Origin: Chrysogorgia sp. JL179-B06
Lineage: Eukaryota > Cnidaria > Anthozoa > Scleralcyonacea > Chrysogorgiidae
Length of the DNA: 64,000 nucleotides
Assembly (NCBI GenBank): GCA_035772405.1
Contig: JAYKKM010000452.1
Location: 1,149,001-1,213,000 of the forward strand
Direction of reading: 5' to 3'
Shown here: positions 11,353 to 55,305 of the stretch, in pieces
How positions within the stretch are numbered: position 1 is the first letter of the stretch
How the letters are laid out: each line of letters begins with the position of its first letter
Made by a program: the position numbers and the translations under genes
The notes under the pieces: generated by a model
What the model saw: only the letters and a program-made list of their open reading frames with translations
Databases searched by the model: none
Told to the model about the DNA's origin: nothing

Positions 11353-11565
11353 TGTCCAGAATTTCCTCTTGTAGGATTAGTTTCCTGGGCAAATCACAGT
11401 TAAATCCTCACACCAAGTTTGATAACATTTAATATAAAACAGGGTTCTTAAAATCGCGCTCGAACAGTCTTCACACACTCTTATTTCGCATGCCTCTCAC
11501 GTGACGTGAGTCACGTTTTTCTAAGTAAGCTTCAAACGTCACATCCGGGTCAACAATTCCCGACA
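11353..11565 (-). repeat. BEL 3' LTR
   Basis: 213 bp, TG...CA ends, matching 55088-55305 except for a few substitutions and a missing 5-bp segment near 11380. On the minus strand the purine run directly upstream (GGGGGAGTG, plus strand 11566-11574) is the polypurine tract. Polinton 1 begins at the next base. Confidence 0.9.
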
Positions 11566-11763
11566 CACTCCCCCAGTAGTAAAGAGGGTAGGGCTGCGAG
11601 CCCACTTTTGACACATTCAATGTTGAACGCGAATATAATCGCCAAAACATCACCAAATTTACACCAAATCCCAAACCCCCAAAATTCGATGTCATTTCGG
11701 TAATTCTAAATTTATAACATACATCAAATAAGACCACAAACCCGATTTATACGCTAATAATGT

Positions 11764-11912
11764 GACATTTCAATATTTTTACATGTTTTTAAAAAAATAG
11801 AAAGTGTCGTTTCACATTTTTCACATATTTAAAAATAGAAAGTGTTGTTTCAACATTTTCACGTATTTAAAAAATAGTCGTTTCAACATTTTCACATTTT
11901 TTTTCAACAAAC
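11764..11912. repeat. AT-rich tandem repeats inside the Polinton 1 TIR
   Basis: Four imperfect units of about 35-38 bp built on GTTTCAACATTTTCACGTAT and TTAAAAAATAGAAAGTGTC. The mirror copy is at about 29403-29551 in the right TIR. They may serve as an origin-proximal or transcription-terminating region. That role is inferred only from position. Confidence 0.7.
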
Positions 11913-11944
11913 TACTGCTGTCTCAACTCACGCGCGAAAAAAAA

Positions 11945-11968
11945 CCACTAGATTTTCAAGTCTAGTGG
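11945..11968. terminator. Short hairpin downstream of the polymerase gene
   Basis: Arms CCACTAGA and TCTAGTGG with an 8-nt loop that itself partly pairs, directly beside an A/T run. The mirror copy is at 29347-29370. Polinton 2 has the equivalent at 30747-30769 and 49285-49307, with a different loop. The position just outside the last gene of each arm suggests an RNA 3'-end or processing signal. The role is inference. Confidence 0.5.
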
Positions 11969-12053
11969 TGATGTTTATCCAAATGGATAGCAAAATGGTG
12001 CTCTTTTGATTGGCTAACAACATTGACTAACAAATAGCCAACTACTCTACGAA

Positions 12054-15000
12054 TTAGTCTGTTTGTTCACTACTCTCAGTGGTATCTCTCACTACAATGT
12101 TTTTGTGGCCATACGCGTAGGAGTCAATACCATTCTCTAAAAGGTATCGTTTGTCGTCAAAGCAGGACAGCGATACTTTATTAATTTCGTAGCTACCAAT
12201 CTGATGTTTGACACTTCTAATGGTCTTCATTGTGTGTCGCAACTGTTTCTGCTCGAGTAACACGCTTTTGTAATCTTCGTGTCTGATTACCTTTTTAATT
12301 ATATTTTTTCTAATACCTTTAGCGGTTTTCCCGCCACCTCCACCCTCTTTCAAATAGCTGTACATTTTACTGCGCAACCCGACGAACTCGACAATTGGCG
12401 TTCCAGCGCACTCGTCCTTCATCTTCCCAATAACTTTCTTATTCTCTCTAAAAAAGAATGGGCTGTCATCGGGATAGTCGCTATTGTCAAACTTTTCGCA
12501 CTCCATCATAAAGTCAGAATAGACGTCATCGGTTTTGATTGTGTACAACAGACTGTCAGTGTCAGTGAAGTGTAATCTGCAGGTATTGCTAGAGTACTTT
12601 TTCATGATATAATTATAGTGAAAATCGTACATTAGCGTTTTACTCAAGTCTAGTATGCACATACCCACATATGCGGGTCTATTTAGTGTCAGCGTTTCTT
12701 TAACCTTATGGACAGCAACTAAGTTCTCGCTAAATATTTTGCAAGACACAAACGTTGGCTTCGAGACAAGCTTTTCTAATTTCTTCGCAGTGGTCACTAA
12801 CCTCACGTCCACACGCTTCCTCAAATTTTCCATCGTTTTTCCGAACACACTGTTGTTCATCAACTTGAAGAAATCCTTCTCAAAAGCGTTCTTAGCCGCG
12901 GTTCTTTTGACTGTGTTAAAGTCAATGTACTTGCCCAACCACTTGGACTGATCAAACTGTAGGACCCTATGAATCTTATTGATTTTTAACCCGAGATCCA
13001 TGTACAACTGCAGATTTCCGTAGTGACACACATACTATTTTTTATCCCTCAAATTAGTCACCAATTTCTTCACACCACCAACACTCACGTTAAACTTATT
13101 TTTGATTTTCGTGCAGTACTCTGACAACATGTCGACAGTTATCTCCATCTTCTCGGGAGCCACCGGGTAATCGTTATGCAGGTCATGCAAATGGGTTGGG
13201 TACTCCAAGTCGACCTCGAGCAGTAAACCTTTTTTACTATTGTTGTGATAGTCGTGCAGATTAACTTTTTCTATTTCTTTCTCAGTCAACCACTTGAAGC
13301 CACCCGTAGGTAGACTTCGACTCATTGCCCATCCGTACAAATTGTTGGCGTCAAGGTACATCAAATACTTCGACTCTCGCGCTTTATCGTACCCCTCCAT
13401 GTACTTATTATTCGCCACGCCATGTCTGTTGCATATGTAGCTCACACCACCACGCATACCCATTTCTACGAACTGGAACATGTCAATGTCAGACAATAAT
13501 TCAAGCTCCACTCCAGTCATCTTTAGCATGGCGTCCCAAGCCAATCCAGGCGATGTGAAATAATGGCAAGGGTCTAATTTATACTCGCGGTGGCACGTCT
13601 TTCTAAAGTTCTCGAAAACGTCGGCGAGCAAGAGCACATCGCTTTTCAAATACAGGTCGTGATACCCACCCATACTTTCAACGTCGAAGTAGTCCCACAC
13701 ATCGATGGCGCGCTCGTGCATTTCTTCCGTAATGTGCTCGTCATTCAGAACGCTGTAGAAGTCCTTTTTGGAGGGTAGCTCGCATTCATTGAATTTATCA
13801 AAGGAGTCCATATAATCGTAGGGATAGACTCCCTTTCTTGTCATGAGTGCCAAACCCTCGTCGTGAAACACTTCCGATGTGTATTTGAAAGCGTCCCTTG
13901 GTAGGTTCTTCACCAAGTTGTCTAGACCACTACTCATAAACTGAAAGCTGTCCAAGAATACCAAGTTTTTTCCAAGCATGAACGCCATGTACTTCTCCAT
14001 GTTGTTTGGTATCACATTTATGTCTTGGCCAAACTTGCCAATCTCCTGCATGATGAAATGGCTATCGTAACCACGTAAGTTATGAAAGATCACAGGAATT
14101 TTATCAGTCAATCTAAAGTTCACGTTACACTCACGATGTGCAGACCCTCTATACTTACCTGACACGTGACAGTGGTCTCTCACTCTAACGTCAGCGCCAG
14201 TGTACTCAACACTGCAAATATGACAACTTTTAGCCTCGTCAAAGTTCTTCTTATCGGCATCAGTCAGTATCATTTCTTTGTTAAAGTGACTCTCAGATGT
14301 CTCTTTACAATATTCAACAATTTCTAACATCTCCCCAATGAACTTGTTGACTGCGTTTTCACCACGGTACACTTTTACTGGCTTACTGTACTCGTTGTCG
14401 TAGCAACAAACCAATTTATACCCATAACCACAGTCAACGTGCCTCTGGTAAGCATTTGTGTAGCTACACTCGCTCGATGGTGTCGCCGCATGCACCTTCT
14501 GTGTGATAGCCTCGAAGTCTGCATACACCACAAATGGTACGTTTAGCTGTCTACTAAAATTCTCGTATTTCACTTTCGCACCTTTTTGTGGCATTTTAAT
14601 AGCTTGCTTCCCATTGATGACCAAACATACTTCCACATGGCGTTCAAGCACGTCCTCGCGACTAAAACACTGCAAACAATACCTACAAAAGTGCTTTCTC
14701 GCCTTATACTTTGTCTGACGGTGCATGAATTTGTTAAAATCGCGAATGTACACATAATGCTTGTTGCCCACGTCATTAGTTATCAACAATAGGTCCATAT
14801 GGTCAGGATACGCCTCCTTAGAAACGTACACAGGGAATGGCTGCTTATTTTCATACCCAAAAACATTTATGCTAATATCGTTCGCCTTTTCGATCTTGTT
14901 GTAGTCTTTGAGTGTGACTGGGAAGTCAATTCCGTCATAATTCAGCTCACCGACATGCCTAGCGTACTTCGACGTTCTATCAGAGTGTTTTCCAACAGGA

Positions 15001-15740
15001 AACTTATGTGCAAGGTGGCACCATCTAAAGCACTCGTTGTCATCCCCATTATTCACGTTTATCAGACCCTTCATACTGTTGCACAGCTCCTTTGGCAACG
15101 CAATGTGGCTACTCCCATGCAAAGGTCTGTAAATAGCGACATTGACGTAGTGTGCGTCTATTTTGTCGATAGTCCATCCAGACCCCTCAGATAACCACCC
15201 AGCTATCCGCGTCAAGATCTGTTCCGACCCACGGTTGGCAACACCTTCAATGTCGCGCTCGTTAATGACGACGAACGTCTCGCTGTTAAAGTAGGCAGTT
15301 TTGTATGTGGTCTTATTGAGTTCTAAAGCCTTCTCAAAAGTGACCTTAACTGTCTCTACCACTTTCATTCCGTTGGTCTCACCTAGTTCACGTCTCAAAA
15401 GATTAATGACAGCGCTTCTACTACCATTCACCTGGTTTATGTCTCTGTCGTTAACCACCTCAACTCCATAAGACCTTGCGAACCCTCTCAGTGCTCGGTC
15501 CAACAGCCGTGGGCTATGGTCTTCAACTGTGGGTTGTGCCTCCTGGTTTCTGACAAGACGGTTGTGTGTCCGACTGCCAATGTTAACTCGTCTGTTTGTC
15601 AGCGGATTAACAATAGTCGCATTTGTCGTGTCACTAAAAACACCATCTCTAACAAGTTGATTGTAGACTCGCCCATGAACGTTGACTGCTCTACCTGTTA
15701 GTGGATTTACAACAGCACCAGTTCTAGCGACGTCACCCAT
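12054..15740 (-). pseudogene. Protein-primed family B DNA polymerase, one in-frame nonsense codon
   Basis: About 1,228 codons. Replicative enzyme of the element, expected to initiate synthesis from a protein bound to the DNA ends. Exonuclease motifs are YADFEA (about residue 405), YDSHF and KSDVLLLADVF. Polymerase motifs are A (LDANNLYGWAM), B (LMNNSVFGKTMENLRKR) and C (FTDTDSLLY). Between them are a C2H2-like finger (CRYCLQCF...HVEVC) and an HNH-like knot (CHIC...DHCHVSGKYRG...H..CN), both common in Polinton polymerases. The N-terminus has two NPLT-x-R units like 2-cysteine adaptor modules of large DNA viruses. A TAG at 13035-13037 interrupts the frame between motifs A and B; Polinton 2 has a lysine codon there. 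The last codons and stop lie inside the TIR. Start ATG at 15740 follows a TATATA run by about 10 nt. Confidence 0.95.
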
Positions 15741-15758
15741 GGCTTCTATATACTACAC

Positions 15759-16316
15759 TTATATTTTTTTCCTAAGCCACTCGTTGTAATAACGATCGCC
15801 ACTTTCGCACCATCCCAACTTTGGATACACCACCCCAAACAGATTGTTGTCAAACTTCTCTTTCACCTTTCCGTCTTTAAGGTCTGACACCTTCTCGAGT
15901 GTCTCGAGTTGTCTTCTATGACACAACCTAATAATGTAGTATCCGTATCTGCTGACATTTCTACCCTTTATCAAATCACATGAGTACAACACACTGACAA
16001 CTTTCAAGAAGTCCTCTTTTATCAACTCAAGGTGCTCACCCTTCACAACGTTCCGTAGTCTCCTCCCCATCCACCAAGACCGTTTGTGGACGCTTTTTAG
16101 TCGTGTGAGTCTCATGTCACCATAACTCTGAATGTAACCCCACTCGATGTCGCCACACTTTGGACACGCGTACCCACCACAGTCAGTCATGTTTTTCACA
16201 ACGTCACAATCCGAGCAGTAGTGAATCCTGAAGGTGTCTCCACACTCAGTTTGCGTCTCACTCGCGATCTCATCAATTGTGTAACCGTAGCTCATCTGCC
16301 TCATAAGTTTGTCCAT
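15759..16316 (-). CDS. Zinc-ribbon protein, possible VLTF3-like late transcription factor
   Basis: 185 residues. The N-terminal half has a four-cysteine ribbon (CSDC at about 34-37 and CPKCG at about 52-56). A basic helical C-terminal half follows (RSWWMGRRLRNVV, then KEDFLKVV and YGYYIIRLCHRR). This layout recalls the poxvirus/NCLDV late transcription factor 3 family, which some Polintons also encode. If so, it would activate late (virion) genes in the host nucleus or cytoplasm. I have no decisive motif, so a generic zinc-ribbon DNA-binding protein is the alternative. It is read with the polymerase downstream (18 nt apart) and the coiled-coil protein upstream. I chose ATG 16316 because the Polinton 2 copy lacks the extra upstream methionine. 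Confidence 0.55.
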   Translation of the reverse strand: MDKLMRQMSYGYTIDEIASETQTECGDTFRIHYCSDCDVVKNMTDCGGYACPKCGDIEWGYIQSYGDMRLTRLKSVHKRSWWMGRRLRNVVKGEHLELIKEDFLKVVSVLYSCDLIKGRNVSRYGYYIIRLCHRRQLETLEKVSDLKDGKVKEKFDNNLFGVVYPKLGWCESGDRYYNEWLRKKI

Positions 16317-16343
16317 CACTCTTATACTACTCCAACATTTCTT

Positions 16344-16763
16344 TTACCGAGTTAGCACCCACACCGCTATTCCACTACCCAAACCTAGCGCACCAACAAA
16401 CAATAATTGGTATTCCTTCATTTCCGCACTCGGTTGGTAGTAATCCGCAATCTTCGGACTCTCAGTGAACACTCGACCGCTGTAGTGAATGGTCATTACG
16501 CTTCTAAGTTCTTCCAACGCATGGTTTGTGTCATTGATGTCAGCATTAGCGTCAGAGAGTCGTTGTCGTAAACGCTGGATCTTATCTTTCTTGGCGACCT
16601 CATTCTCATACCACACTTCTTTCGCACTGGCTAGCTGTTCCAACGCATGGTTGTGTCTTTTCATCTCAGCTTCATAGCCTGAATGATTAAACTTCGAGAA
16701 CATAAAGCCAGCGCCTGCAAAAGCCACTGCATTAAAAATCCCTCCAGCCACAACACTCACCAT
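16344..16763 (-). CDS. Coiled-coil protein with two membrane segments
   Basis: 139 residues, not recognised by name. An N-terminal hydrophobic glycine/alanine segment (about 3-22) and a C-terminal one (about 119-137) flank a charged heptad-like helix (about 30-95; QRLRQRLSDANADINDTNHA). The layout suggests a protein embedded in or bridging a membrane, such as a virion or assembly membrane. The copy in Polinton 2 is nearly identical (139 residues), which argues for selection before insertion. It overlaps nothing and lies 4 nt from the next gene upstream, consistent with a compact co-oriented block. Confidence 0.75.
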   Translation of the reverse strand: MVSVVAGGIFNAVAFAGAGFMFSKFNHSGYEAEMKRHNHALEQLASAKEVWYENEVAKKDKIQRLRQRLSDANADINDTNHALEELRSVMTIHYSGRVFTESPKIADYYQPSAEMKEYQLLFVGALGLGSGIAVWVLTR

Positions 16764-16767
16764 TAAC

Positions 16768-17010
16768 TTACGTTGATTTGAATGGATCTGTCGGTATCCA
16801 CTTTTTCGATTGCGCCCATTTTACTAGCAGCGTTCCTGCACCAACAGCTGCAGCAAGTTTCACTGTGCCTTTCACAGTCTCTGGTGTTCCCAATGGTTCT
16901 CCCAAAGCCTTTTTAGAAATCATACTCACTACCACAGCACCAGTCGTGACAAGAAGCGCATCGTACAATTCGTTCATAAGCTCTTTTCGATCGATCGCAG
17001 TCATATACAT
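16768..17010 (-). CDS. Small membrane protein, 80 residues
   Basis: Two hydrophobic segments (about 19-32 and 50-65), separated by a short loop with GEPLGTPETVKG, and a basic/aromatic C-terminus (SKKWIPTDPFKST). No family name is recognised. Similar short two-span proteins occur in invertebrate Polintons, in my recollection. Conserved in Polinton 2, where a 2-nt insertion near 43624 moves the usable start two codons inward. Confidence 0.75.
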   Translation of the reverse strand: MYMTAIDRKELMNELYDALLVTTGAVVVSMISKKALGEPLGTPETVKGTVKLAAAVGAGTLLVKWAQSKKWIPTDPFKST

Positions 17011-17025
17011 TGTCGTGTGTTTTGT

Positions 17026-17370
17026 TCAAGAATCAAATGTGTCTAACGCTGGACGAGTTTTATGACTTTCTGACACACTAGCTGGTGCAGTACTCACAGG
17101 TTCTAATTGCGTCTCTTTTTCACTGCTAATTGTGTACCATAACGAAGCAGCAGCAATGATAACACCAAGTGTTCCAACAATATAACCATAGCTCCACTCA
17201 CTACCCTGTTCTTCGTTGACTATCATTTCACGCATTTTCTTTTCTTTCGCAGCTTTCGATATCTCAGCCAACTTTTTACCAGCAGCGACGCGCTTTGGGT
17301 CCTTCACCTTAACACTTTTCACATCAGTTGTGATCTTAGCGTCGACAGCCGTCTGTGGGTCCTCAGCCAT
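17026..17370 (-). CDS. Basic single-span membrane protein
   Basis: 114 residues: a lysine-rich N-terminal half (KVKDPKRVAAGKKLAEISKA, about 21-40), one membrane span (about 61-80, YIVGTLGVIIAAASLWYTI) and a Ser/Thr/Pro-rich tail. The basic segment could face nucleic acid. It is the first gene of the minus-strand block that ends in the polymerase, and it faces the zinc-finger gene across a 131-bp divergent promoter. Function unknown. Polinton 2 has a 111-residue copy with three residues fewer after the membrane span. Confidence 0.75.
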   Translation of the reverse strand: MAEDPQTAVDAKITTDVKSVKVKDPKRVAAGKKLAEISKAAKEKKMREMIVNEEQGSEWSYGYIVGTLGVIIAAASLWYTISSEKETQLEPVSTAPASVSESHKTRPALDTFDS

Positions 17371-17501
17371 CTATTACACTATCACGTGTTATCTTACTCA
17401 CAGTTGACCTCACAGGTGTCTCACAGTTGACCTCACAGGTATCTCACAGTTCCAGACCAAACGCACTAAAAATTAGGGTTTTTTTCTGGGAGTATAACAT
17501 A
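17371..17501. promoter_or_regulatory. Divergent promoter region with tandem repeats
   Basis: 131 bp between two outward-facing start codons. It contains 2.5 tandem units of about 24 bp (TCACAGTTGACCTCACAGGT, from about 17398), a CACGTG-like box (ATCACGTGTTAT) near the left gene and GTATAACATA 6-16 nt before the right ATG. Polinton 2 keeps the same arrangement at 43138-43268 with slightly diverged repeats. These are the best candidate shared control elements in the element. Confidence 0.6.
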
Positions 17502-18239
17502 ATGACTCAAGACCGAGAGGTTAGCGAAGAAGTTATTGACCGCTTGCTGAGAACGGCCTTTGTCAGTGTGTCTACCCCACGAGTCGACAATGGACCCAAC
17601 GTCTTAAACGAGTACTTTTCAATATACAATCTGCTTGACCTCAGACGTGAAGAGGTGTTAATAAAACAGCCTATCCCCCAGGTCGACTGTGCGAGGCATC
17701 TTCACGACGCTTGGATCGATCTTCGAGAAGATAGAGCCAAGGAGATTGCTGATAGATTAGCTAGCATAATCCCTGTGTGGTGTTACTCATCATTCAAGTA
17801 CCTTATGTTAGCAAGTGATGTCTACTTGAACAACCCTAGTGGGTCCAACGGTACGTTACTCGGTAACTCCCTCCAAGTGTTCTTAGTGACCCTTATATGG
17901 AAACCATGCCCAACCAAAGCCAAAGCGTGGCTAGAGCTCGCCGCAAACCGCGACGTTCACGTTTGCAAGGTGGGGTGTAATGAGATACTGGGTGCGGATG
18001 ATATCAGGGACCACGTACTCTCGCCCGCCCACAGACACTTTGCGAGAGATGAAAACGTGTACACCTGTCACCCGTGCGGTGTGGTCACCAACGACCCACT
18101 GCATCGCTTGAGACACGAGAGCTCGAGGTCCCACCTTAAAAACTTAGAGCTTCAGCGGATATTTAACAATGAACAACAGTTGCCGCAACAGGAGAGAACA
18201 TTTCTCTGGAGGTATAGTAATCATGAAGAAACTCGGTAA
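17502..18239 (+). CDS. Zinc-finger protein of unknown function
   Basis: 245 residues. The N-terminal two thirds have no recognised fold. The C-terminal part has two finger-like groups: C-x3-C...H (CKVGC...HVLSPAHRH, about 155-180) and CHPC...H-x5-H (about 188-209), a spacing like U1/matrin-type fingers of RNA- or DNA-binding proteins. ATG 17502 was chosen because the Polinton 2 protein begins with the same MTQ. The open frame extends upstream but without conservation. The 3' end overlaps the thymidine kinase start by 17 nt, implying coupled expression. Confidence 0.75.
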   Translation: MTQDREVSEEVIDRLLRTAFVSVSTPRVDNGPNVLNEYFSIYNLLDLRREEVLIKQPIPQVDCARHLHDAWIDLREDRAKEIADRLASIIPVWCYSSFKYLMLASDVYLNNPSGSNGTLLGNSLQVFLVTLIWKPCPTKAKAWLELAANRDVHVCKVGCNEILGADDIRDHVLSPAHRHFARDENVYTCHPCGVVTNDPLHRLRHESSRSHLKNLELQRIFNNEQQLPQQERTFLWRYSNHEETR

Positions 18240-18765
18240 GCTAGAAATCGTGATTGGTCCCATGTTTGCAGGAAAAACAACAGAGACTCTTCGTAGGTTA
18301 ATCACGTTAAGTAAGTCAGGGCTCAAAGTCCTTTACATGAACAACACAGGTGACACTAGGCGAACTGACCACGCGTTCTCCACACATCGTCAGACCATTG
18401 TCGTTGGATCAGACAGTTTACCTGCGAAGTTAATCACCAACCTCCCAAGCTCTTCTGAGATAGCTGATTACGACGTCATCGGCATTGATGAAGGCCATTG
18501 GTACTCTGATCTACTCCCAGTTATTCACGAGTACATCAAAGCTGGCATTCATGTCATTATTTGTGGTCTCATAACAACGGAGCACTTAAAAAGACTTGGT
18601 GAACTTGACACGTTGTTCCCAATGGCAGACGACATCACATTTCTAAAAGCGCATTGCGTCGTTTGTCGTGACACTTACGGAACAACTGTTGAAGCACCAT
18701 TCAATTGGAGATATAATCCAGGACCATCGTTTGTTGGTGGTGCTGAGCAATATCGTGCAGTGTGA
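18223..18765 (+). CDS. tk: Type II thymidine kinase, C-terminally shortened by nonsense mutation
   Basis: 180 residues. Phosphorylates thymidine to dTMP, supplying precursors for DNA synthesis in non-dividing cells. Seen here: P-loop GPMFAGKTTE (about 12-21), the Mg-binding IDEGHWY (about 88-94), an HVIICGL strand, and the CVVC half of the structural zinc site (about 145-148). The frame stops at TGA 18763-18765, where Polinton 2 has a cysteine codon followed by a basic, histidine-containing tail. The second half of the zinc site is therefore lost and the product is probably impaired. The cellular and NCLDV families use the same fold. Thymidine kinase is not a standard Polinton gene. Confidence 0.92.
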   Translation: MKKLGKLEIVIGPMFAGKTTETLRRLITLSKSGLKVLYMNNTGDTRRTDHAFSTHRQTIVVGSDSLPAKLITNLPSSSEIADYDVIGIDEGHWYSDLLPVIHEYIKAGIHVIICGLITTEHLKRLGELDTLFPMADDITFLKAHCVVCRDTYGTTVEAPFNWRYNPGPSFVGGAEQYRAV

Positions 18766-19030
18766 AGACGTCATCATCCTTCCACACAAAATTAAGGGTG
18801 TTCTCGGATACCCCACTTTTTAAATTTATACATTGGTAACATGAAACGTCCAATGTCATAGAAACATTTTTTCACACAGTGGTCAGAAGGTTTGTGAAAT
18901 AAAGAGAGAGAGTTTCACAGATATTTTTAACGAGTTAAAAAAACGTCTTTAAAAAACGCTAGAGCAGTTGTCACTTCAAGCATCGTCTCAACAACAAGAA
19001 CGAGCGCTAACTCGACTTATTACTCGTTGT
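18766..19030. other. Convergent intergenic region
   Basis: 265 bp between the 3' ends of thymidine kinase (+) and the BRO protein (-). It contains AATAAAG-type A-rich motifs (near 18898) and short T-runs on the complementary strand that could serve as polyadenylation signals for both genes. No gene seen. The Polinton 2 counterpart is 41610-41846. Confidence 0.5.
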
Positions 19031-19792
19031 CTAAAAAGTCTCTTTACAATAGTGTCTCTCGTGGTTACTTAACGCCGACTTATTTTTAAATTTACGAAAA
19101 CACTGGGAACACTGAAACCCAACGTCAAAGAAATATTTTATCACCGTGGTGATAGCGTCATCGTATGAGTCGCACAACAATGTTAGATAACCAGCGGATT
19201 TGTATCTGAGCAGCAGAGAGTCTTGCTCTTCAGATGTCTTACCTGTGCCACCTGGGTTCTTGAACTCAATCACGAGTCCGCTGTGCTGTCGGTTTGCGTT
19301 GGCAATAATCAAGTCAGGCGTTCCACGTTGGTAACCTTTTTTCCACGAATTTATTCTTTTACTCGAAGTGTCTTGATTCTCACCACAAGCGGCTATCAAA
19401 ATAGCCTCTGGATAATATTTCCTAAGAAAACCAACGACTTTTGTGTGAAGATCGAACTCAGTGATCATTTTAAACTGATTGTGTTTGAGACCAACGTCGG
19501 CTAAACTTTTTCTAACGCTTGGTAAGACTTCTGAGTGCACCCACCTTCCGAAGTGTCTCGCACGCTCCATTTTACTCGAGAACACCAATGAGTAGACTCC
19601 AAGTTCGTTGATAAACGAGGCCTGCTCTATCTTCATTTTACAATCAGGTTCGACGTGGTCGTTGACCGCATCCTTTGGTCGAGCGTAACCTAGAGCGCTT
19701 GCGACTTCTCTTGCTTTGAACCATATGTCACCGTTGTGATTAGCCATCGTGATTTGGTGACCATCGAATAATTGCACTGAGTTGGTTGCCAT
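19031..19792 (-). CDS. BRO-N / VRR-NUC-like nuclease / zinc-finger fusion protein
   Basis: 253 residues with three parts. (1) A BRO-N (Bro/KilA-type) DNA-binding domain, about 5-110, with WFKAREVASALGY and VHSEVLPSVRKS. (2) A PD-(D/E)xK nuclease-like region, about 130-215, resembling VRR-NUC: RGTPDLIIAN, VIEFKNPGGTGK and LLLRYKSAGY supply the D...E-x-K and Q/Y residues expected. (3) A C-terminal C2HC finger (CSQCF...SNHERHYC). BRO proteins are common in large insect and protist viruses. The fused nuclease suggests DNA processing or host-DNA attack rather than simple regulation. Intact in both Polintons. An A/T-rich TACTATAATAG box precedes the start by few bases. Confidence 0.85.
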   Translation of the reverse strand: MATNSVQLFDGHQITMANHNGDIWFKAREVASALGYARPKDAVNDHVEPDCKMKIEQASFINELGVYSLVFSSKMERARHFGRWVHSEVLPSVRKSLADVGLKHNQFKMITEFDLHTKVVGFLRKYYPEAILIAACGENQDTSSKRINSWKKGYQRGTPDLIIANANRQHSGLVIEFKNPGGTGKTSEEQDSLLLRYKSAGYLTLLCDSYDDAITTVIKYFFDVGFQCSQCFRKFKNKSALSNHERHYCKETF

Positions 19793-44891: not shown

Positions 44892-47800
44892 ATGAGTCGG
44901 ACTGTGAGAAACCCGCTGAAAAAAAGACGGGCGCATAAGACGAGTGCAGCCGTTGTCAATTCACTAACAGATGAAGCGACCAACGTTCACGGCTTCTTTA
45001 GAGATCAGGAGGGACAACCTGCAGTCGAAGACCTCGCACCGTCGACGCATCTGTTGGATCGAGCACTGAGAGGGTTCACAAGGTCTTATGGAGTCGAGGT
45101 AATTGACGACAGAGACATCAATCAGGTAAATGGTAGTAGAAGTGCTGTCACTAACCTTTTGAGACGTGAGCTGGGTGAGACCAACGGAATGAAAGTGGTG
45201 GAGACAGTCAAGGTCACTTTTGAGAAAGTTTTAGAACTCAATAAGACCACATACAAAACTGCCTACTTTAACAGCGAAACGTTCGTCGTCATTAACGAGC
45301 GTGACATCGAGGGTGTCGCCAATCGTGGGTCGGAGCAGATTTTGACGCGGATAGCTGGGTGGCTATCTGAGGGGTCTGGATGGACTATCGACAAAATAGA
45401 CGCACACTACGTTAATGTCGCTATTTACAGACCTTTGCATGGGAGTAGCTACATTGTGTTGCCAAAGGAGCTGCGCAACAGTATGAAGGGTCTGATAAAC
45501 GTGAATAACGATGATGACAACGAGTGCTTTAGATGGTGCCACCTTGCACACAAATTCCCTGTTGGAAAAAACTCTGACAGAACGTCAAAGTACGCTAGGC
45601 ATGTCGGTGAGCTGAGTTATGACGGAGTTGACTTCCCAGTCACACTCAAAGACTACAACAAGATCGAAAAGGCGAACGATATTAGCATAAATGTTTTTGG
45701 GTATGAAAATAAGCAGCCATTCCCTGTGTACGTTTCTAAGGAGGCGTATCCTGACCATATGGACCTATTGTTGATAACTAATGACGTGGGCAACAAGCAT
45801 TATGTGTACATTCGCGATTTTAACAAATTCATGTACCGTCAGACAAAGTATAAGGCGAGAAAGCACTTTTGTAGGTATTGTTTGCAGTGTTTTACTCGAG
45901 AGGACGTGCTTGAAAGTCATATTGAAGTGTGTTTGGTCATTAATGGGAAGCAAGCTATTAAAATGCCACAAAAAGGCGCGAAAGTAAAATATGAGAATTT
46001 TAGCAGACAATTAAATGTACCATTTGTGGTGTATGCAGACTTCGAGGCTATCACACAGAAGGTGCACACAGCGACGCCATCAAGCGAGTGTAGCTACACA
46101 AATGCTTACCAGAGGCATGTTGACTGTGGTTATGGGTATAAATTGGTTTGTTGCTATGACAATGCGTATAGTAAGCCAGTGAAGGTGTATCGCGGTGAAA
46201 ATGCAGTCAACAAGTTCATTGGGGAGATGTTAGAAATTGTCGAATATTGTAAAGAGACATCTGAGAGTCACTTTAACAAAGAAATGATACTGACTGACGC
46301 CGATAAGAAGAACTTTGACGAGGCTAAAAGTTGTCATATTTGCAGTGTTGAGTACACTGGTGCTGACGTTAGAGTGAGAGACCACTGTCATGTCTCAGGT
46401 AAGTACAGAGGGTCCGCACATCGTCAGTGTAATGTGAACTTTAAGTTGACTGACAAAATTCCTGTGATCTTTCATAACTTACGTGGTTACGATAGCCATT
46501 TCATCATGCAGGAGATTGGTAAGTTTGGTCAAGACATAAATGTGATACCAAACAACATGGAGAAGTACATGGCGTTCATGCTTGGAAAAAACTTAGTATT
46601 TTTGGACAGCTTTCAGTTCATGAGTAGCGGCCTAGACAACTTGGTGAAGAACCTACCAAGGGACGCTTTCAAGTACACGTCAGAAGTGTTTCGTGACGAG
46701 GGGTTGGCACTTATGACAAGAAAGGGGGTCTATCCCTATGATTATATGGACTCCTTTGAAAAATTCGACGAGCGCGAGCTACCCTCCAAAAAAGATTTCT
46801 ACAGCGTTCTGAACGATGAGCACATTACGGAAGAAATGCATGAGCGCGCCATCGATGTGTGGGACTACTTCGACGTTGAAAGTATGGGTGGGTATCACGA
46901 CCTGTATTTGAAAAGTGATGTGCTCTTGCTTGCCGACGTTTTTGAGAACTTTAGAAAGACATGCCATCGCGAGTATAAATTAGACCCGTGTCACTATTTC
47001 ACGTCGCCTGGATTGGCTTGGGATGCCATGTTAAAGATGACTGGAGTAGAACTCGAGTTATTGTCCGACATCGACATGTTCCAGTTCGTAGAATTAGGTA
47101 TGCGTGGTGGTGTGAGCTACATATGCAACAGACATGGTGTGGCGAACAATAAATATATGAAGGGGTACGATAAAGCGCAAGAGTCGAAGTATTTGATGTA
47201 CCTTGACGCCAACAATTTGTATGGATGGGCGATGAGTCGAAGTCTACCTACAGGTGGCTTCAAGTGGTTGACTGAGAAAGAAATAAAAAAGGTTAATCTA
47301 CACGACTATCACAACAATAGTGAAAAGGGCCTGCTGCTTGAAGTCGACTTGGAGTATCCAGCCCATTTGCATGACCTACATAACGACTACCCGTTGGCTC
47401 CCGAGAAGATGGAGATAACTGTTGACATGTTGTCGGAGTACTGCACGAAAATCAAAAATAAATTTAATGTGAGTGTTGGCGGCGTGAAAAAGTTGGTGAC
47501 TAATTTGATGGACAAAAAAAAGTATGTGTGTCACTATGGAAATCTGCAGTTGTACACAGGTCTTGGACTAAAAATCAAAAAGGTGCATAGGGTCCTACAG
47601 TTTGACCAGTCTAAGTGGTTGGGCAAGTACATCGACTTTAACACAGTCAAGAGAACTGCGGCTAAGAACGCTTTTGAGAAGGACTTCTTCAAGTTGATGA
47701 ATAACAGTGTGTTCGGAAAAACGATGGAAAACTTGAGGAAGCGTGTGGACGTAAGATTAGTGACCACCGAGAAAAAGTTAGAAAAGCTTGTCTCAAAGCC

Positions 47801-48484
47801 TACGTTTGTGTCTTGCAAGATATTTAGCGAGAATCTAGTCGCTGTCCACAAAGTCAAAGAGACGCTAACATTAAATAGACCTGCATATGTGGGTATGTGC
47901 ATACTAGACTTGAGCAAAACGTTGATGTATGATTTTCACTATAATTATATCATGAAAAAGTACTCTAGCGACACCTGTAGATTACACTTCACTGACACTG
48001 ACAGTCTGTTGTACTCAATCAAAACTGGCGACGTTTATTCCGACTTCATGGAGGAGCGTGAAAAGTTTGACAATAGCGATTACCCTGCAGACAACCCGTT
48101 CGCTTTCAAAGAGAATAAGAAAGTTATTGGCAAGATGAAAGACGAGTGCGCTGGAACACCAATTATTGAGTTCGTTGGGTTGCGCAGTAAAATGTACAGC
48201 TATTTGAAAGAGGATGGGGGTGGTGGGAAAACCGCTAAAGGCATTAGAAAGAACATAATTAAAAAAGTGATCAAGCATGAAGATTATAAAAGTGTGTTAC
48301 TTGAGCAGAAACAATTGCGACACACAATGAAGACCATTAGAAGTGTCAAACATCAGCTAGGTAGTTTACGAAAATTAATAAAGTGTCGCTATCTTGTTTT
48401 GATGATAAACGATACCTTTTAGAAAATGGTATTGACTCCTACGCGTATGGTCACAAAAACATTGTAGTGAGAGACATACCTTAA
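44892..48484 (+). pseudogene. Protein-primed DNA polymerase B (Polinton 2), 3' frameshift
   Basis: The first 1,150 or so codons are open and contain all exonuclease (about 381, 533, 675) and polymerase motifs A (about 770), B (about 940) and C (about 1036). Between 48360 and 48376 small insertions relative to Polinton 1 shift the frame, so the last 40 or so residues are replaced and the frame ends at 48422. The native stop position would be 48482-48484. It lacks the second N-terminal NPLT-x-R unit present in Polinton 1. Catalytic motifs are intact, so loss of function is likely but not certain. Confidence 0.93.
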
Positions 48485-48533
48485 ACACTGCGACGTGATT
48501 CCCATAAGGTCGCTCTCCCCACGCGTGCGAGAT

Positions 48534-48781
48534 TGCAAACGCTTTTCTCACCGACTTGTTAATCAGCAAATTCGCTAGCTTACTGGACGGGTTGAACGCT
48601 ATTGAAAATCCTGATGAGCTAAATGACGAGTTAAAAAAGACGTCGAGAGCATTGTCGCGATTGTGACACCGTACGTGCCTTTCTTGGGCTTGTTGTCGGG
48701 AGGAATCACAACGTCTAAATATGTGTACGACCACCATTTCAGAAGTGCGACAAACACTGAAAATAGCGAGCGGGTGGACTA
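48534..48781 (+). pseudogene. Duplicated 3' fragment of the distal helical gene
   Basis: Matches the 3' part of 31272-31782 (in the other TIR) but lacks the first part. It has a deletion of about 20 nt near 48634 and no start codon. It is a by-product of TIR expansion past the gene, not a functional gene. Confidence 0.85.
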
Positions 48782-49529
48782 ATTTGCATGTTAGCAGGTG
48801 GCTTCATAACAACCGCGCGAGTCCATTCACACAACGGTTTTTTATTCACGATATTTATAGTGTACGATTTAACGAGTGCGCTCAAAGTTAGACAGTCTTA
48901 GCATGGTGGGCCTCACCCCTTCTTCAAACATCGCGATTCTTCTCTCGTAGTCAGCTATCTCCACCTCGCACGACAGCAGGTGGTTGTACGTGGTGTGTCG
49001 CTAACAACAACATTCCATTGCGAATAGCAACCACAACTTTTTGAAAAAAATATTTTAAAATGAAAATATTTTTTCAAAGTGAAAATATTTTTTAAAAGTG
49101 AAAATATTTTTTAAAAGTGAAAACATTTTTTTGAAAAGTCGTGGTTGCTATTCGCAATGGAATGTTGTTGTTAGCAACATCAACAGGTGACCTTGATTCG
49201 TATAGCAGGTAGAGCGCTCTCGCATATGAAATCTATTTAACACTAAACTCTAGTGGCTCTCTCGCTGAAATTTATTAAACATCGTCACTAGAATCATAAT
49301 CTAGTGGCTTTTTTTCGCGCATGAATTGAAACAATGGTAGAGCGCGTCTGTTGTAGTTTGTTGAACACAAATGCGAAAATGGTGACACAAAACTTTCTCT
49401 AAATTTGACGAAATGTGTCGTATTTCGTTAAAATAGCGATTTGGTGTTGTCTCGTGAGTCTCGCGTGTGTTTGACATCAATTTAGTAGAAAACGTGGGAG
49501 GGGTGTTTAGATTGACTAACGATCGCTGT

Positions 49530-49698
49530 AGTAGTATAGTAAGTAGGGCTGCGAGCTTATTCGACGTCAATCGTGAATATAAACACCAAAACATCGCCAA
49601 ATTTGTCGAGTCGCGACTTGGCCAAATTTGGTGACGTTTTGGTGTTTATACTCACGATTGAGGTCGATTGAGCTCGCAGCCCTACTTACTATACTACT
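49530..49698. repeat. Terminal 169-bp palindrome, right
   Basis: Same palindrome as 30356-30524 in inverted orientation. Flanked outside by TAGTTT (49699-49704). Confidence 0.9.
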
Positions 49699-50122
49699 TA
49701 GTTTAGGCAAAGTTCTTGACAGAAAGTACAATTCCTTACATTTTAATGTGTTCTGTGTAACCTGAGTCTACCTGAGCGGCTGAGCCGATCACTGCCGACG
49801 CGGACATATAAAACACTCTCGTCAATCCTCCGGTTGACGATTTAGCGAAAAGCTAAGAAAGACCATTTGCATCGCAACGCTTTGCCAAGAGCTTTGTAAA
49901 ACATACTGGGCCATTCTTTATCGGTAAACAAATATTTTTCCTGGTCTTCGAACAAGCTAAACATCGTCGATGACAGTAGCAAATTATAGAGAACTGGAAA
50001 CCAGAGGACTGGGAACAAAAACCCAATTTTGGGGACTTTTTCATCGGAGTTCCCCAGAGCCTCTGTTTTCTTGGCGCAGGCCAAAAGGAACGCAGGCTCT
50101 GGGTACGAGATTGCGTCGGAAT

Positions 50123-53100
50123 GTGGGCGCTGTCGGATTTAGTGTTTCTTTTGGTGCCTTGTCACAAGAGAGTTCCAGTGGGTATAACTGTTGGATGGCC
50201 CGTTCTAGAATCCCTTTTCATGCGCGCAACTTCGCAGCCCAAACCACTCCGTCCTTTCCTTTGACAAGCTCTTGTACTACCCCAAGCTTCCATTGGTTCC
50301 GATTACTTTGATCTCCTTGGATGATCACCGCGTCTCCTACTGCTGGATGAACTGACTGCTTCCCTCCGGCTTGTCGGTGTTGTTTACGTAAGCTGCGGAT
50401 ATACTCTCTAGACCATCGTCTCCACATCGCGTCTTTGCAGCGGCTCAAGTGTCTCGCTCGTTTTCTTAGGCTTGATTCAGGCAGGTGATGAGCCTCCAAT
50501 TCGGGTAATAGATTAGGATTCTGGTGTTGCATCGCGTATGGAGTAAGTAATGGTAGTTGTATGTCGTCCACATTGAGGACGACATACATTGAATTCTAAC
50601 GGCCGGTTGTTAATTGCGATGTCTACGTCAAGTACGATTTCTTCCAGCTCTTTCCAACGCAAGATCCCATTGCCAATTACTTTATAGAAAGCGTTCTTGA
50701 ATATTCCAATCAACCGTTCAAATTGACCGCCCCACCATGGAGCCTTACTGAGGTTGAAGCACCACTTGATGGACTGACGGGCAAGGTAGTCGTGAAACTT
50801 CTCATCTATTTGTACCTTTTTAAGCCATGTCGCTGCAGCTTTGAATGTTCCGCCATTATCGGAGTAGATAATTTGGGGTCTACCGCGTCGAGCAATAAAC
50901 CGTTTCAGACTGGTCAGGAACTGGTCCGTTTCAAGGGACGGCAGTAGTTCCAAGTAAACTCCTCTTGTTAAACTGCACGCATAAATTACCAAATACGCTT
51001 TGCTCACGGTCTTGGCTCGAATTTGATACTTGATGGGCCCAGCGAAATCAACCCCGATTACTTGATATGGCTTGTCTCCTTGCGTTCGCGTGGTGGGTAG
51101 ATTACCAGGAGGTGGCGACTCGAAAGCTCTCAGTTGAAACCGCTTGCAACCCCAGCATTTCCTTCTGATTTTCTTCACCAAGCATCTCAGTCTTGGAACC
51201 CAGTATCTTTCCCGTATCTTCGCCATGGTGAGTGATACTCCCCCATGCAACGTTTCAAGATGAGCTTCTTGAACTAACTTCATGGTGAAGGGATGGTGAT
51301 CAGGAAGATATATAGGGTGTTCACCTTGAAGTCTTCCTCTACACTCCAGGATTTTGTCCATCAGAGTATTGAATGCATTTGTAGGAACGACGACAGCTAG
51401 CACCTCTTTAGTCATCTTGGCTTCGGCTTTACTCGCGGCACACCGCACCGGTGTTATGTCCGGTGGCCACTGCTCTGAATCTGCTAACCACGACGGGCCA
51501 CTGCTCCATAATTGTGACTTGGTCACACTCCCCCCACGACTACCCAAATCTGCTGGATTCTCACTGGTTGGTACATGATGCCACTTGATGTTGGTGTGTT
51601 CTCTGATCTTGTTCACACGGTTTGAGACAAATTGCTTGTATTGACCACTGCCTTGAATCCAATACAACGCCACTGTACTATCTAGCCAACAGTGGAGTTC
51701 TCTTGCAACCATTGGTCTAAGTGATTGATGAACGTTGTTAATCAGGTTAGCAGCCATGTGCCCAGCTACTAATTCTAATCTTGGTATCGTCAACCCACGT
51801 TTAGCTAGACGTGACTTTGCTGTGACGATGCCCTGCGTTATTCCGTCCTTTTGATCCACCACCGCGTATACTACTGCGCAAACTCCTTGGATACTGGCAT
51901 CTCCGAATGCGTGTAAGGATATGTTCTGTATAGGCTGTTGATGTGGTGCGACTGATCTTGGAAGACTGATAGACTCTGGCAATTTCTCGTACCAGTTATT
52001 CAACGCTTTTGAATTTCGTGAGGCAACTCAGTATCCCACGCTAGCTTCTTGTCGCTGATCGCTCGGAAAATCATCTTTCCTCATAAGACTGTCGGCGAGG
52101 CTATCCCCAATGGATCACAAACTTTCGCAAGACTTGATAAAACTCCCCTTTTCGTGGGCTCCCCCTTCTCTTGTGGAAATTCTACTCTTAAAGTGTCGCT
52201 TGCTTTATTCCACGGTAGACCGAGAATCTTTGTTTCCACAGCGGTAGTTCCGAGTTGTTGTTTAGCGTAAGACAGTTCGTCTGCTCCGGTCGCTTCATCG
52301 TTAAATTCTGCTTCCAGCTGGATTGCGTTACTGTGAAACTTGTGCAATTTGAAGCAGCCATCTTCGAAAATCTCTTTGGCGATTTCTTTCTTACTCTTTG
52401 CTTCGGAGACGTTGTTTCCACCAAGCAGTAGATCATCCACGTACATGCTGCTACGTAATTCCTCCACCATCTCGGGATGTCGATCTTCCCACGCCGCTAG
52501 GTGTTGGTTAAGGACTCCTCCCAATAAGAACGGTGAGCAAGTTAAACCAAAAAGAGCTCCAGTGAATCGATACGTTTCTATGTTGGAGGATTGAGGATGT
52601 CTCCAGTGAAATCGTAGAGCGTCACGCTCTTCAGATCGAATACGGATTTGCAGAAATGCCTTCTGCAAATCTCCGGTGACCATGACAGGATGGAATCTTG
52701 TCTTCACAAGGACGTTCCATAGAAGATTCTGAAGAGGCGGTCCAGGGTTAAGACAGTCGTTCAACGATGGTTGATCATTTCGTTCTATCGCAGAGGCATC
52801 GTATACCACTCTTAGCTTGGTACTTTCTGCATCTTGTCGGACAACAGCTTTGTGGGGGATGTAGAATTCTCTACCCGTGACGACTTCGGGGGCTTTCTCC
52901 ACGACTCCATACTCTATCTGATCTTGGATGATCTCGTCGTACTTCGAGTAATCGCCATTGCGTTCCAACTTGCGAACCAGTTGTTGCAGTCTACTGAGGC
53001 TGCCCATCTTGTTGGTTGATAACTCTGGATGGTTGGCTTTCCAAGGAAGTCCAGTTTCATACAATCCGTCCTTATTTCGCTGTAATTGTTCCTTGAATTC

Positions 53101-55021
53101 TTGGTAGACTGTGTTTTGATCATGCTCTGGTGCATCCTCCAAACCAAGAACATCAAGGTTACATAACTGCTCGTAGTCGGTACTCGTGGAACGTGTAAGC
53201 ATCAAGGGACTGGTGTCGACTTCTCGGCCAGGTGACATTATCGTCCATCCAAGAAGAGTCTTCTCTGCCACTGGTTGTCCAGGCAATCCAACTCTTGGTG
53301 CGGTCTTGGATTTAATTGCAGCATACTCGCTCGCACCCAGCACAATATGAATAGGCAGCTCTTGTTTAGCATCAACATCATGAATTTGTATTCCATGAAG
53401 GTGTGGATATTTATTCAACCAACTTTGGTAGTTTGGATTATCTAAACACATCAACTCTGGTTTGTCCACCTTAGTTAAGTTGATGTCCATTAAGAAATCA
53501 CCGTCTATGGATTTCATCTGAGCGCTGTAGGTTTCCACTTTTATTGTAGTTGCACCAAACATCATTTCAATGCGCTTGGTTTTGGTTTCGGTTGGCTTTT
53601 TGTGAAGGGCGTTGATCAACTTAGCTGAGGCATATGAGCTTCCAGCTCCAGTATCAAGGAGTGCTCTCGTCTTGATGCCATCTATCTCCAGAAGTACCAC
53701 CGGATATATCACTTCGCCGTTATCTGATTGATGTGCTGAATACATTTTCTCTGATTCAGGCTTTTCGTCACATATGGATGTGTGGTGCCGCTTTGCACAT
53801 TTCCGACAGGTTGTTGTACTTCGACATTCAGCTGCGCGATGTGATCTACCCGTACAGTTATAGCACAGTTTCTTTTCTGCAAGGATTTTCTTTCGATCTT
53901 CCGAAGACTTGACCGTTGAGCACTCTACCGACTTATGCTCTGATGACTCGCAATATACACACAGGTTTGGCTTCGTTTGATCCCTTTTCTGATGTGTTTT
54001 GTAAACTTTGCTCGACTTTTCTCGCTTTCGGGGTGGATCTTCTGGTTTTAAAGTGTCGACAGGATTTCGACGTGTCATGCAAAGACGAAGAGCTTCGGTA
54101 AGCTGCACAAAGTTCCATTTCTCCCAGTTGGTGTCTGTACGGACAAGGTCTCCTCGAATTGCAGTTAATTTGTCTAGCGTCATCGAAACGGCACCATCTA
54201 CCTGGCTTATTTTGTTGAGGGTTTCAAGCGACTGCACGTTGTATGTTAACTTTTCATGGAACTCGTGGACCTTCTTCGTGTTGGCTGTTGGAATATATGG
54301 GAGCTCTAGTATTTCCTTTATATGCGTTTTGACTATCTCACTCTCTTTACCATATCTATCATGAAGTATCGCTTTGGCGCGGTTATATCCTTCCGGTATA
54401 TACGGTAATGCTTCAACAACTTTCTTTACTTTGTCGTCTAACAACTCTCTAAGGTAAGCAAATTTTGTGATTGGGGCAACGTTAGTTTTTTCAATAGTCT
54501 CCGAAAATTGTCCCCAGAATCTGGGCCAATCGGTGTATAATCCACTGAATTTCGTAACAACAAGCTTTGGCAATTTGGCATGACTATTAATTACTTCGCT
54601 TGTCGCTTGTCGCTTCTGCTTGATTTGATTTGACTGTTGCGAGTTCTGATTGTAATTTCATCTTAGTTTCATGCAGTTTCACCTCGAATTTTATCTGCTC
54701 TTAAAGCTCGTGAATTTCTTGCTTTGTTTTCTGGTCTTTGGTCCACTGTTTCAGGCGTTCTACGCTCTGGTCTGCTTCAGCGATTTCTGTTTCAATCTTG
54801 ATATTCTACGCATCGATCTCATCTGCTTGTTGTTTATCCTCGATTTTGAAGGCTTCCACCGTTCTTCGCAGGTTATCCGTTTCAGCTGTTATGGTTTTAA
54901 CGGCAACTTGATGTCTTTCTATCGCTTCAGTTTGGCCAGCATCAAGAAGTGCCTCGGTTCGCTTCGTTGTTATTCTTAGTTGAGTTAATTTCGTGCTGAG
55001 TTTAGTTTCGGCTTCGTCCAT
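50123..55021 (-). pseudogene. BEL/Pao Gag-Pol polyprotein, multiply broken
   Basis: Starts at ATG 55021 (coiled-coil N-terminus). In order it then has the DUF1759-type capsid (FSGLYTDWPRFWGQF), zinc knuckle CYNCTGRSHRAAEC and a second CRKC finger, aspartic protease ALLDTGAGSSYA, reverse transcriptase with YVDDLLLGG, and RNase H (HAFGDAS near 51910). The integrase follows with HHCC finger (H...H...CWGC) and core (VGVDFAGP-like, SDNGGTF, WGGQFERLIG), then a DUF5641-like tail. Breaks: TAG 54806-54808, TAA 54701-54703, a shift near 54590, TGA 52081-52083, a shift near 52005 and another near 50580. The last codons are at 29855-29936. The product would have driven reverse transcription and integration of the BEL element. 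Confidence 0.92.
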
Positions 55022-55067
55022 TGTTGATGTTAGTTTAAATATATTTTTGGTTTCGCTATCGTTCGTT

Positions 55068-55085
55068 GCCCCACGTTGGGCGCCA
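55068..55085 (-). other. BEL primer-binding site
   Basis: On the minus strand, two bases after the 5' LTR, TGGCGCCCAACGTGGGGC is complementary to a tRNA 3' end (TGG is the complement of CCA). This sets the orientation of the element and the LTR boundary. Confidence 0.8.
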
Positions 55086-55087
55086 CG

Positions 55088-55305
55088 TGTCCAGAATTTC
55101 CTCTTGTAGGATTATTATAGTTTCCTGGGCAAATCACAGTTAAATCCTCACACCAAGTTTGAGAACATTTAATATAAAACAGGGTTCTTAAAATCGCGCT
55201 CGAACAGTCTTCACACACTCTTATTTCGCATGCCTCTCACGTGACGCGAGTCACATTTTTCTAAGTAAGCTTCAAACGTCACATCCGGGTCAACAATTCC
55301 CGACA
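55088..55305 (-). repeat. BEL 5' LTR
   Basis: 218 bp, TG...CA ends, nearly identical to 11353-11565. Contains an AATATAAA-type TATA candidate (plus strand near 55170, ACATTTAATATAAAAC) and GC-rich CACGTGACG boxes that may form its promoter. Followed outside by TGAC. Confidence 0.9.

What the first reader, a model, noticed from the sequence alone, without database searches (positions are those of the whole stretch)
11353..55305. Four-element nest: two sister Polintons trapped in one BEL retrotransposon
Target duplications (TGAC, TCCCCC, CGTCGGAAT, TAGTTT) date the order directly: BEL first, then Polinton 1 and the small transposon into BEL, then Polinton 2 into the small transposon. Two independent Polinton insertions within about 0.4 kb of original BEL sequence, in opposite orientation, are unlikely by chance. 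Targeting of silenced retroelement chromatin through the integrase chromodomain is a natural hypothesis.
Basis: partly seen in the sequence, partly recalled or inferred. Interest (0 to 1): 0.8.

Follow-up and report, generated by a model that had tools for sequence, protein, structure and literature searches.

The report
Nested Polintons in a BEL retrotransposon
Four mobile elements really are nested inside one another here, including two virus-like Polintons, but this genome carries so many Polintons that such neighbours are expected by chance somewhere in it, so the nest alone does not show targeted insertion.

Summary
The nest is real. A BEL/Pao retrotransposon (11353-55305) holds Polinton 1 (11575-29740) and a small 9-bp-TSD transposon (29937-50113), which holds Polinton 2 (30356-49698). 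All four target duplications are exact. Corrections: Polinton 2 lies in the small element, not in BEL, and the duplications leave part of the order open. The Polintons are separate lineages (89% alike overall; dN/dS under 0.15 in 11 of 16 comparisons), not daughter copies. 'Unlikely by chance' fails genome-wide: the family covers 4.8% of the bases at 80 random points and 22.5% of 20 longer stretches of this 781-Mb genome, so a few to tens of equally close pairs are expected. One other copy appears to hold a second Polinton. Ten of ten examined pairs have 6-bp duplications without a shared motif. Chromodomain targeting stays open: the chromodomain resembles HP1 and keeps its aromatic cage (70 of 71 relatives covering it), but 0 of 19 short flanks code for a retroelement (background 33 of 650), while two of three Polintons with longer neighbouring sequence lie near LTR elements. 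The ends of Polinton 2 also show concerted evolution of inverted repeats.

The parts
11349..11352 (.). BEL target duplication, left copy (TGAC; right copy 55306-55309)
11353..11565 (-). BEL 3' LTR
   Evidence: 210 of 213 aligned bases identical to the other LTR, 5 gap columns
11569..11574 (.). P1 target duplication TCCCCC (right copy 29741-29746), in the polypurine-tract-like G-run of BEL next to the LTR
   Evidence: empty site of short flanks
11575..29740 (+). Polinton 1, 18,166 bp; inverted repeats 11575-12081 / 29234-29740
   Evidence: 506 of 507 identical
12054..15752 (-). P1 B-family DNA polymerase, interrupted by one in-frame stop (ORFs 12054-13034 and 13035-15752); endonuclease VII-like stretch (below Pfam's cut-off)
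   Evidence: polymerase blocks read on the P2 copy
18148..18765 (+). P1 thymidine kinase
   Evidence: PF00265 5.4e-25
19031..19828 (-). P1 Bro-N / VRR-NUC protein
   Evidence: PF02498 3.7e-20
23290..24429 (+). P1 integrase with C-terminal chromodomain
   Evidence: PF00665 4.1e-6 (below its cut-off), PF00385 1.9e-10; D-D-E blocks and Y/W/Y cage present
26861..28129 (+). P1 capsid candidate (422 aa; no family match)
   Evidence: 439 relatives; purifying selection
28130..28744 (+). P1 packaging ATPase (A32-like)
   Evidence: PF04665 1.4e-16
29747..29927 (-). BEL 3' region between P1 and ST
29928..29936 (.). ST target duplication CGTCGGAAT (right copy 50114-50122)
29937..50113 (.). small non-autonomous transposon (419 + 409 bp of its own, ends 85% alike over 75 bp), split by P2
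30350..30355 (.). P2 target duplication TAGTTT (right copy 49699-49704)
30356..49698 (-). Polinton 2, 19,343 bp, opposite to P1; inverted repeats 30356-31421 / 48633-49698
   Evidence: 1064 of 1066 identical
30356..30524 (.). terminal palindrome of P2: an extra inward-facing copy of the element end (mirror copy 49530-49698)
   Evidence: arms 69 of 75
36185..37342 (-). P2 integrase with chromodomain
   Evidence: PF00385 6.9e-11
44877..48422 (+). P2 DNA polymerase, one open frame of 1181 aa
48529..48638 (.). inner part of the expanded P2 repeat: fragment of the gene at 31272-31754 copied to the other end
   Evidence: 100 of 110 identical
50224..54657 (-). BEL/Pao pol pieces (DUF1759, weak aspartic protease, RT, A17, integrase, DUF5641)
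55088..55305 (-). BEL 5' LTR, followed by a primer-binding-site-like TGGCGCCC...

Best explanation
An ordinary, if spectacular, nest of independent insertions in a genome overrun by one Polinton family. A BEL/Pao element inserted; a Polinton integrated into its polypurine-tract-like G-run and a small 9-bp-TSD transposon near the end of its pol region; a second Polinton of a related lineage integrated into the small transposon. Each Polinton integrates by its own integrase (6-bp duplication, AGTAGTA... ends) after copying by its own polymerase (inferred from the genes). With thousands of copies present, two landing 0.6 kb apart somewhere needs no special targeting. Shown: borders, duplications, abundance, lineage separation. 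Inferred: mechanism, and absence of strong targeting.
For: Exact duplications of 4, 6, 9 and 6 bp. Each Polinton has the same duplication at both its own ends, so the inverted pair has not been flipped or mis-joined. Abundance: Polinton family in 5 of 80 random points (2,682 of 56,000 bases; 95% interval 2-14% of points) and in 7 of 20 ten-kb stretches (44,920 of 200,000 bases); 2,638 first-look candidates for the P1 repeat, 40 scored. Expected pairs within 609 bp: 0.6 at 2% of the genome, 3.2 at 4.8%, 70 at 22.5%. Ten of ten examined pairs, of 15 others found, show exact 6-bp duplications with no common motif. The 46.3-kb copy on C416 appears to hold a second Polinton: 4 of 7 points inside match Polinton in an order that fits. 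P1 and P2 differ at dS 0.13-0.61; dN/dS is under 0.15 in 11 of 16 comparisons and 0.21-0.56 in 5, so neither is a local copy of the other.
Against: Genome-wide expectation is not the chance for this one window: for a given 64-kb window such a pair has about 0.03-0.6% chance (my arithmetic), so a modest preference is not excluded. At the lower bound of abundance only 0.6 pairs are expected. The two abundance samples disagree (4.8% against 22.5%). Two of three sampled Polintons with longer neighbouring sequence lie near an LTR-retrotransposon pol: L011, Ty3/gypsy 585 bp from the Polinton end; L023, BEL pol 1.5 kb from where Polinton similarity begins in mid-gene; the third, L013, showed none in the four ORFs scanned. 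One of 13 Polinton-free stretches (L019) has BEL and three have LINE.
Confidence: 0.75

Rival explanations
1. The integrase chromodomain binds H3K9-methylated nucleosomes and directs Polintons to silenced retroelements, so the nest is a product of targeting.
For: Chromodomain in both integrases (PF00385 1.9e-10 and 6.9e-11); best PDB sequence match CBX5/HP1 alpha 1.4e-7; the three cage positions are aromatic in 70 of the 71 relatives that cover them (120 listed relatives tested of 975 found; 76 had a chromodomain hit). P1 hit BEL directly; the L011 and L023 Polintons lie near LTR elements. Precedent, from passages: the MAGGY group I chromodomain targets H3K9me2/3 heterochromatin (PMC3350952).
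Against: 0 of 19 200-bp flanks of ten related copies have a retroelement protein match, against 33 of 650 background pieces (weak test, about 1 expected); none matches this BEL or ST. P2 went into a DNA transposon. Abundance explains proximity.
Confidence: 0.18
2. P2 came in as cargo: it entered ST elsewhere and ST jumped into BEL carrying it, so only one Polinton inserted at this locus.
For: The duplications do not order the two steps.
Against: Mobilising a 20-kb cargo by an 0.8-kb non-autonomous element is unlikely (general knowledge).
Confidence: 0.05
3. Assembly artefact joining two Polinton loci.
For: Two 18-19 kb inverted copies about 89% alike are hard to assemble; no reads were available.
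Against: Four different, self-consistent duplications; no N in the window.
Confidence: 0.02

Closest known systems
Polinton/Maverick elements (adintovirus-like endogenous viruses) of animals
   Same: 18-19 kb, long inverted repeats with AGT-type ends, 6-bp duplications, integrase, B-family polymerase with endonuclease-like stretch, A32 ATPase. Vertebrate Mavericks: (AGT)2 end motif and 6-bp TSDs (PMC8097293, passages).
   Different: Polymerase gives no DNA_pol_B_2 hit; thymidine kinase and Bro-N/VRR-NUC genes; doubled palindromic ends and gene-bearing expanded repeats in P2; no capsid or protease family match among the ORFs scanned.
BEL/Pao LTR retrotransposons
   Same: DUF1759, weak aspartic protease match, RT, Peptidase_A17, integrase, DUF5641, LTRs with TG...CA ends.
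   Different: 4-bp duplication; broken by two insertions.
Cafeteria EMALE virophages with Ngaro retrotransposons; cryptophyte polinton-like viruses with retrotransposons
   Same: Nested virus-like elements and retroelements (PMC8547959, PMC12220804, PMC12747079; passages).
   Different: There retroelements sit inside the virus-like elements; here the direction is reversed. EMALE sites showed no sequence specificity and 18 of 29 were within 10 kb of repeats.
Trichomonas vaginalis Mavericks
   Same: Massive amplification: about 3,000 copies, about 37% of the genome (PMC4021607, passage).
   Different: Here a 781-Mb, probably animal genome, sampled at 4.8% and 22.5%.
Mutator-like transposons (for ST)
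   Same: 9-bp duplication, imperfect inverted repeats (class recalled).
   Different: No transposase seen in ST; class not tested.

Membership tests
Polinton/Maverick | Retrovirus-like integrase | tested here: met
   rve + chromodomain in both, D-D-E blocks; rve scores lie below Pfam's cut-off, but most listed relatives carry PF00665
Polinton/Maverick | Protein-primed B-family DNA polymerase | tested here: inconclusive
   No PF03175 hit, no PDB hit; DANNLYG, KLMNNS and TDTDS blocks invariant in 16 sequences (motif names recalled); protein priming untested
Polinton/Maverick | A32/FtsK-type packaging ATPase | tested here: met
   PF04665 1.4e-16 in P1; the P2 ORF is 95% identical to it
[quoted passage not shown]
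Polinton/Maverick | Ulp1/adenain-type protease | tested here: inconclusive
   No Pfam match among the 25 Polinton ORFs scanned (7 P2 ORFs of 150 aa or more were not scanned); weak evidence in a divergent lineage
Polinton/Maverick | Long inverted repeats and 6-bp duplication | tested here: met
   Both window copies and 10 of 10 further pairs examined
BEL/Pao | Pol with A17 domain and integrase between LTRs | tested here: met
   PF05380 2e-18, PF03564 3.9e-20, PF18701 3.2e-15; LTRs
HP1-like methyl-lysine-reading chromodomain | Three aromatic cage residues | tested here: met
   Y/W/Y in both, aromatic in 70 of 71 covered relatives; cage positions as described for Y24, W45, Y48 in PMC3350952 (passage)
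HP1-like methyl-lysine-reading chromodomain | Binding to methylated H3K9 | not testable with these tools
   needs a binding assay
Mutator-like transposon (ST) | Related transposase mobilising these ends | not tested
   only duplication length and ends seen

The most novel reading that the evidence does not exclude
A group of animal Polintons carries an HP1-class chromodomain that steers integration into H3K9-methylated retroelements, so that virus-like DNA elements pile up in silenced LTR elements; this nest and the neighbours in L011 and L023 are products of that steering.
Probability: 0.18. Interest if true: 0.65.

Novelty: new member of a known kind. Interest (0 to 1): 0.4.

Why it matters
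It shows how a striking nest can mislead without a copy-number baseline. The by-products matter more: a probably cnidarian genome in which one Polinton family makes up several to perhaps twenty percent of the DNA, with conserved HP1-like chromodomains and intact duplications, is a good place to test whether Polinton integration reads chromatin. The ends of P2 give a sequence record of how inverted repeats of such elements are kept alike and replaced.

Tried and rejected
Relatives in IMG/VR and GTDB contigs: none confirmed. PDB search with the capsid candidate and with the polymerase profile: none. Structure prediction: off. PHROGs, 8 ORFs: endonuclease VII in the polymerase, one weak tail-fibre and one weak unknown match. 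Considered and dropped: P2 as a local copy of P1 (dS too large); a preferred target motif (11 duplications at copies with P1-type repeats, window P1 included, and that of P2 share none); 30356-30524 as a separate mini-element inserted in P2 (no duplication of its own seen). In one search I gave a wrong right-end coordinate for C94; it landed inside the repeat, was left out of the flank count (19 of 20), and was redone. The low silent divergence of the chromodomain codons (1 synonymous change, p 0.0016 post hoc) is reported but not interpreted. Of the 16 paired copies only C416 was sampled inside; three others are 21-23 kb long and their extra DNA was not looked at. The first 20 control stretches were at round-number positions chosen by me on 7 large contigs; the 80 points were drawn by seed from 57 contigs, those printed less four with very short bounds, plus the window's own; both frames favour contigs with a PF03175 match. 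The gypsy query used came from L011 itself, so L011 is a biased success. The first full report draft said 92% for the cores and 36 scanned ORFs; on recount these are 89% overall and 25 Polinton ORFs.

Full report
What is there. The window lies on contig C452 of a 781-Mb assembly in 522 contigs. Reading outside in: a BEL/Pao element on the minus strand, 11353-55305, with LTRs alike at 210 of 213 aligned bases and a 4-bp duplication TGAC; pol pieces carry DUF1759, a weak aspartic protease match, reverse transcriptase, Peptidase_A17, integrase and DUF5641. P1 (11575-29740) sits in what looks like the polypurine tract: the short-flank empty site reads ...ATGGGGGGAGTG|LTR. A small transposon (29937-50113, 828 bp of its own, 9-bp duplication) sits 181 bp of BEL away, near the end of the pol region as judged from the flanks, and is split by P2 (30356-49698). 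All duplications are exact.

Two Polintons. Both carry integrase with chromodomain and a Bro-N/VRR-NUC protein. A32-type ATPase and thymidine kinase were recognised in P1; the P2 ORFs are 95% and 96% identical to these. The long polymerase ORF gives no DNA_pol_B_2 hit but has the three B-family blocks, invariant in 16 relatives (motif names recalled). In P1 it is broken by one in-frame stop; in P2 it is open. A 422-aa ORF beside the ATPase is my capsid candidate; 35 of its 120 listed relatives are named as from the octocoral Paramuricea clavata and no other listed relative names an organism, so the host is probably a cnidarian (inference). Homologous ORFs of P1 and P2 are 77-97% identical in protein; dS runs from 0.13 to 0.61, and dN/dS is under 0.15 in 11 of 16 comparisons and 0.21-0.56 in the other 5. 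They are two lineages that were both under selection for long before they landed here. The two repeats of each element differ by 1 of 507 and 2 of 1066 bases, so neither can be called older.

Was it chance? In 20 ten-kb stretches (positions chosen by me) the family covered 44,920 of 200,000 bases, in 7 of 20 stretches. In 80 points drawn by seed it covered 2,682 of 56,000 bases; 5 of 80 points had at least 100 bp of it by nucleotide match and 6 of 80 by protein match. The two estimates differ and both frames lean to contigs with a Polinton polymerase; I take 5-20%. That is about 2,000 to 9,500 element equivalents, and 3 to 70 pairs of insertion points within 609 bp are expected under random insertion; at the lower confidence bound, 0.6. 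So 'unlikely by chance' does not hold for the genome, though for one window taken at random such a pair would still be rare (about 0.03-0.6%, my arithmetic). A search with the P1 repeat returned 40 scored matches out of 2,638 candidates, giving 16 elements with both ends, P1 included, and 8 with one end. Of ten pairs examined all have exact 6-bp duplications: CATATA, CTGGGA, AACTTT, CAAGGG, GAGTTG, TGCATT, GTTATC, TCTCAT, AGGAAA, GTCCAC. The pair on C416 is 46.3 kb apart; of seven 200-bp points inside it, four match Polinton, in an order that fits a second Polinton, with a P2-type end, nested in the first; three match nothing in hand. One such case among 16 paired elements, of which only this one was sampled inside, is in line with random insertion (expected 0.05-0.2 per element, my arithmetic).

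Is there targeting? For: the chromodomain aligns with HP1 alpha (E 1.4e-7) and keeps an aromatic cage in both copies and in 70 of 71 relatives covering it. One Polinton hit BEL itself. Of three sampled Polintons with more than 1 kb of neighbouring sequence, one (L011) has its end 585 bp from a Ty3/gypsy pol, one (L023) begins in mid-gene 1.5 kb from a BEL pol, and the third (L013) has no TE domain in the four ORFs scanned. Among 13 Polinton-free stretches one has BEL and three have LINE; among the 80 points none has BEL and three have LINE. Against: 0 of 19 200-bp flanks have a retroelement protein match, background 33 of 650; none matches the window's BEL or ST, and 5 of 19 have short matches to other sampled DNA. 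These samples are too small to decide. Published context, from passages only: virophage insertions showed no sequence specificity and 18 of 29 sites lay within 10 kb of repeats (PMC8547959); Ty3/gypsy elements are often seen near protist virus insertions (PMC10120064 legend); the group I chromodomain of MAGGY targets H3K9 methylation (PMC3350952). Four searches of the open-licence library listed no paper that I could recognise as testing chromatin targeting of Polintons; I saw the listings, and passages of seven of the papers listed there (PMC8547959, PMC8097293, PMC12220804, PMC12910113, PMC12220107, PMC12747079; and PMC3350952 and PMC10120064 from other searches).

Ends of P2. The two repeats of P2 reach into a gene: a piece of the gene at 31272-31754 has been copied to the other end. 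The outer 1066 bp are 1064/1066 identical, the next 110 bp of the same duplication only 100/110 (Fisher 2e-9), and the border lies at a length difference between the copies. Each repeat also begins with a 169-bp palindrome whose arms are 69/75 alike, although each arm is identical at both element ends (the only differences between the repeats are at 31189 and 31419). The simplest reading is that the repeats were renewed from each other during replication, long after the duplication arose: concerted evolution of ends, as known for adenovirus repeats (recalled). The repeats of P1 are quite different from those of P2 (bins of 55-77% identity), so ends have also been exchanged or replaced between lineages.

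Verdict. Real nest, ordinary in kind; the strong statement about chance is not borne out; targeting open at about 0.18.

Noticed in passing
30356-31421 and 48633-49698: P2 repeats are 99.8% alike over 1066 bp while the next 110 bp of the same duplication are 91% alike; sign of repeated end-to-end homogenisation.
   Followed up: partly
30356-30524, 30875-31058 (mirrored 49530-49698, 48996-49179): Two palindromes inside each P2 repeat; the outer one is a second, inward-facing element end.
   Followed up: partly
whole genome G000: One Polinton family covers 4.8% (80 random points) to 22.5% (20 longer stretches) of sampled DNA, which seems high for an animal-type genome.
   Followed up: partly
G000 C416:2062305-2108602: A 46.3-kb Polinton that appears to hold a second Polinton with a P2-type end (4 of 7 sampled points), exact 6-bp duplication GAGTTG.
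   Followed up: partly
window about 21210 (P1 base 9636); L027, L028: Nucleotide similarity to two sampled relatives breaks off at the same point, suggesting a variable gene module at 21119-22618 (in L028 that protein is only 40% identical).
   Followed up: no
24837-26868 and 33663-36184: Internal duplication: the C-terminal part of one ORF is shared by its neighbour in both Polintons (69% identical within P1).
   Followed up: no
6693-7883: Reverse transcriptase ORF (PF00078 1.7e-39) left of the nest, probably a LINE.
   Followed up: no
55713-55833 / 56597-56717: 121-bp inverted repeats 763 bp apart, probably another small transposon.
   Followed up: no
about 24298-24426 versus 36188-36316: Chromodomain codons of the two integrases have 1 synonymous difference where the rest of the gene predicts about 7; possible recent exchange.
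   Followed up: no
L023:6976-7438: Recent 232-bp tandem duplication inside the ATPase gene of a relative.
   Followed up: no
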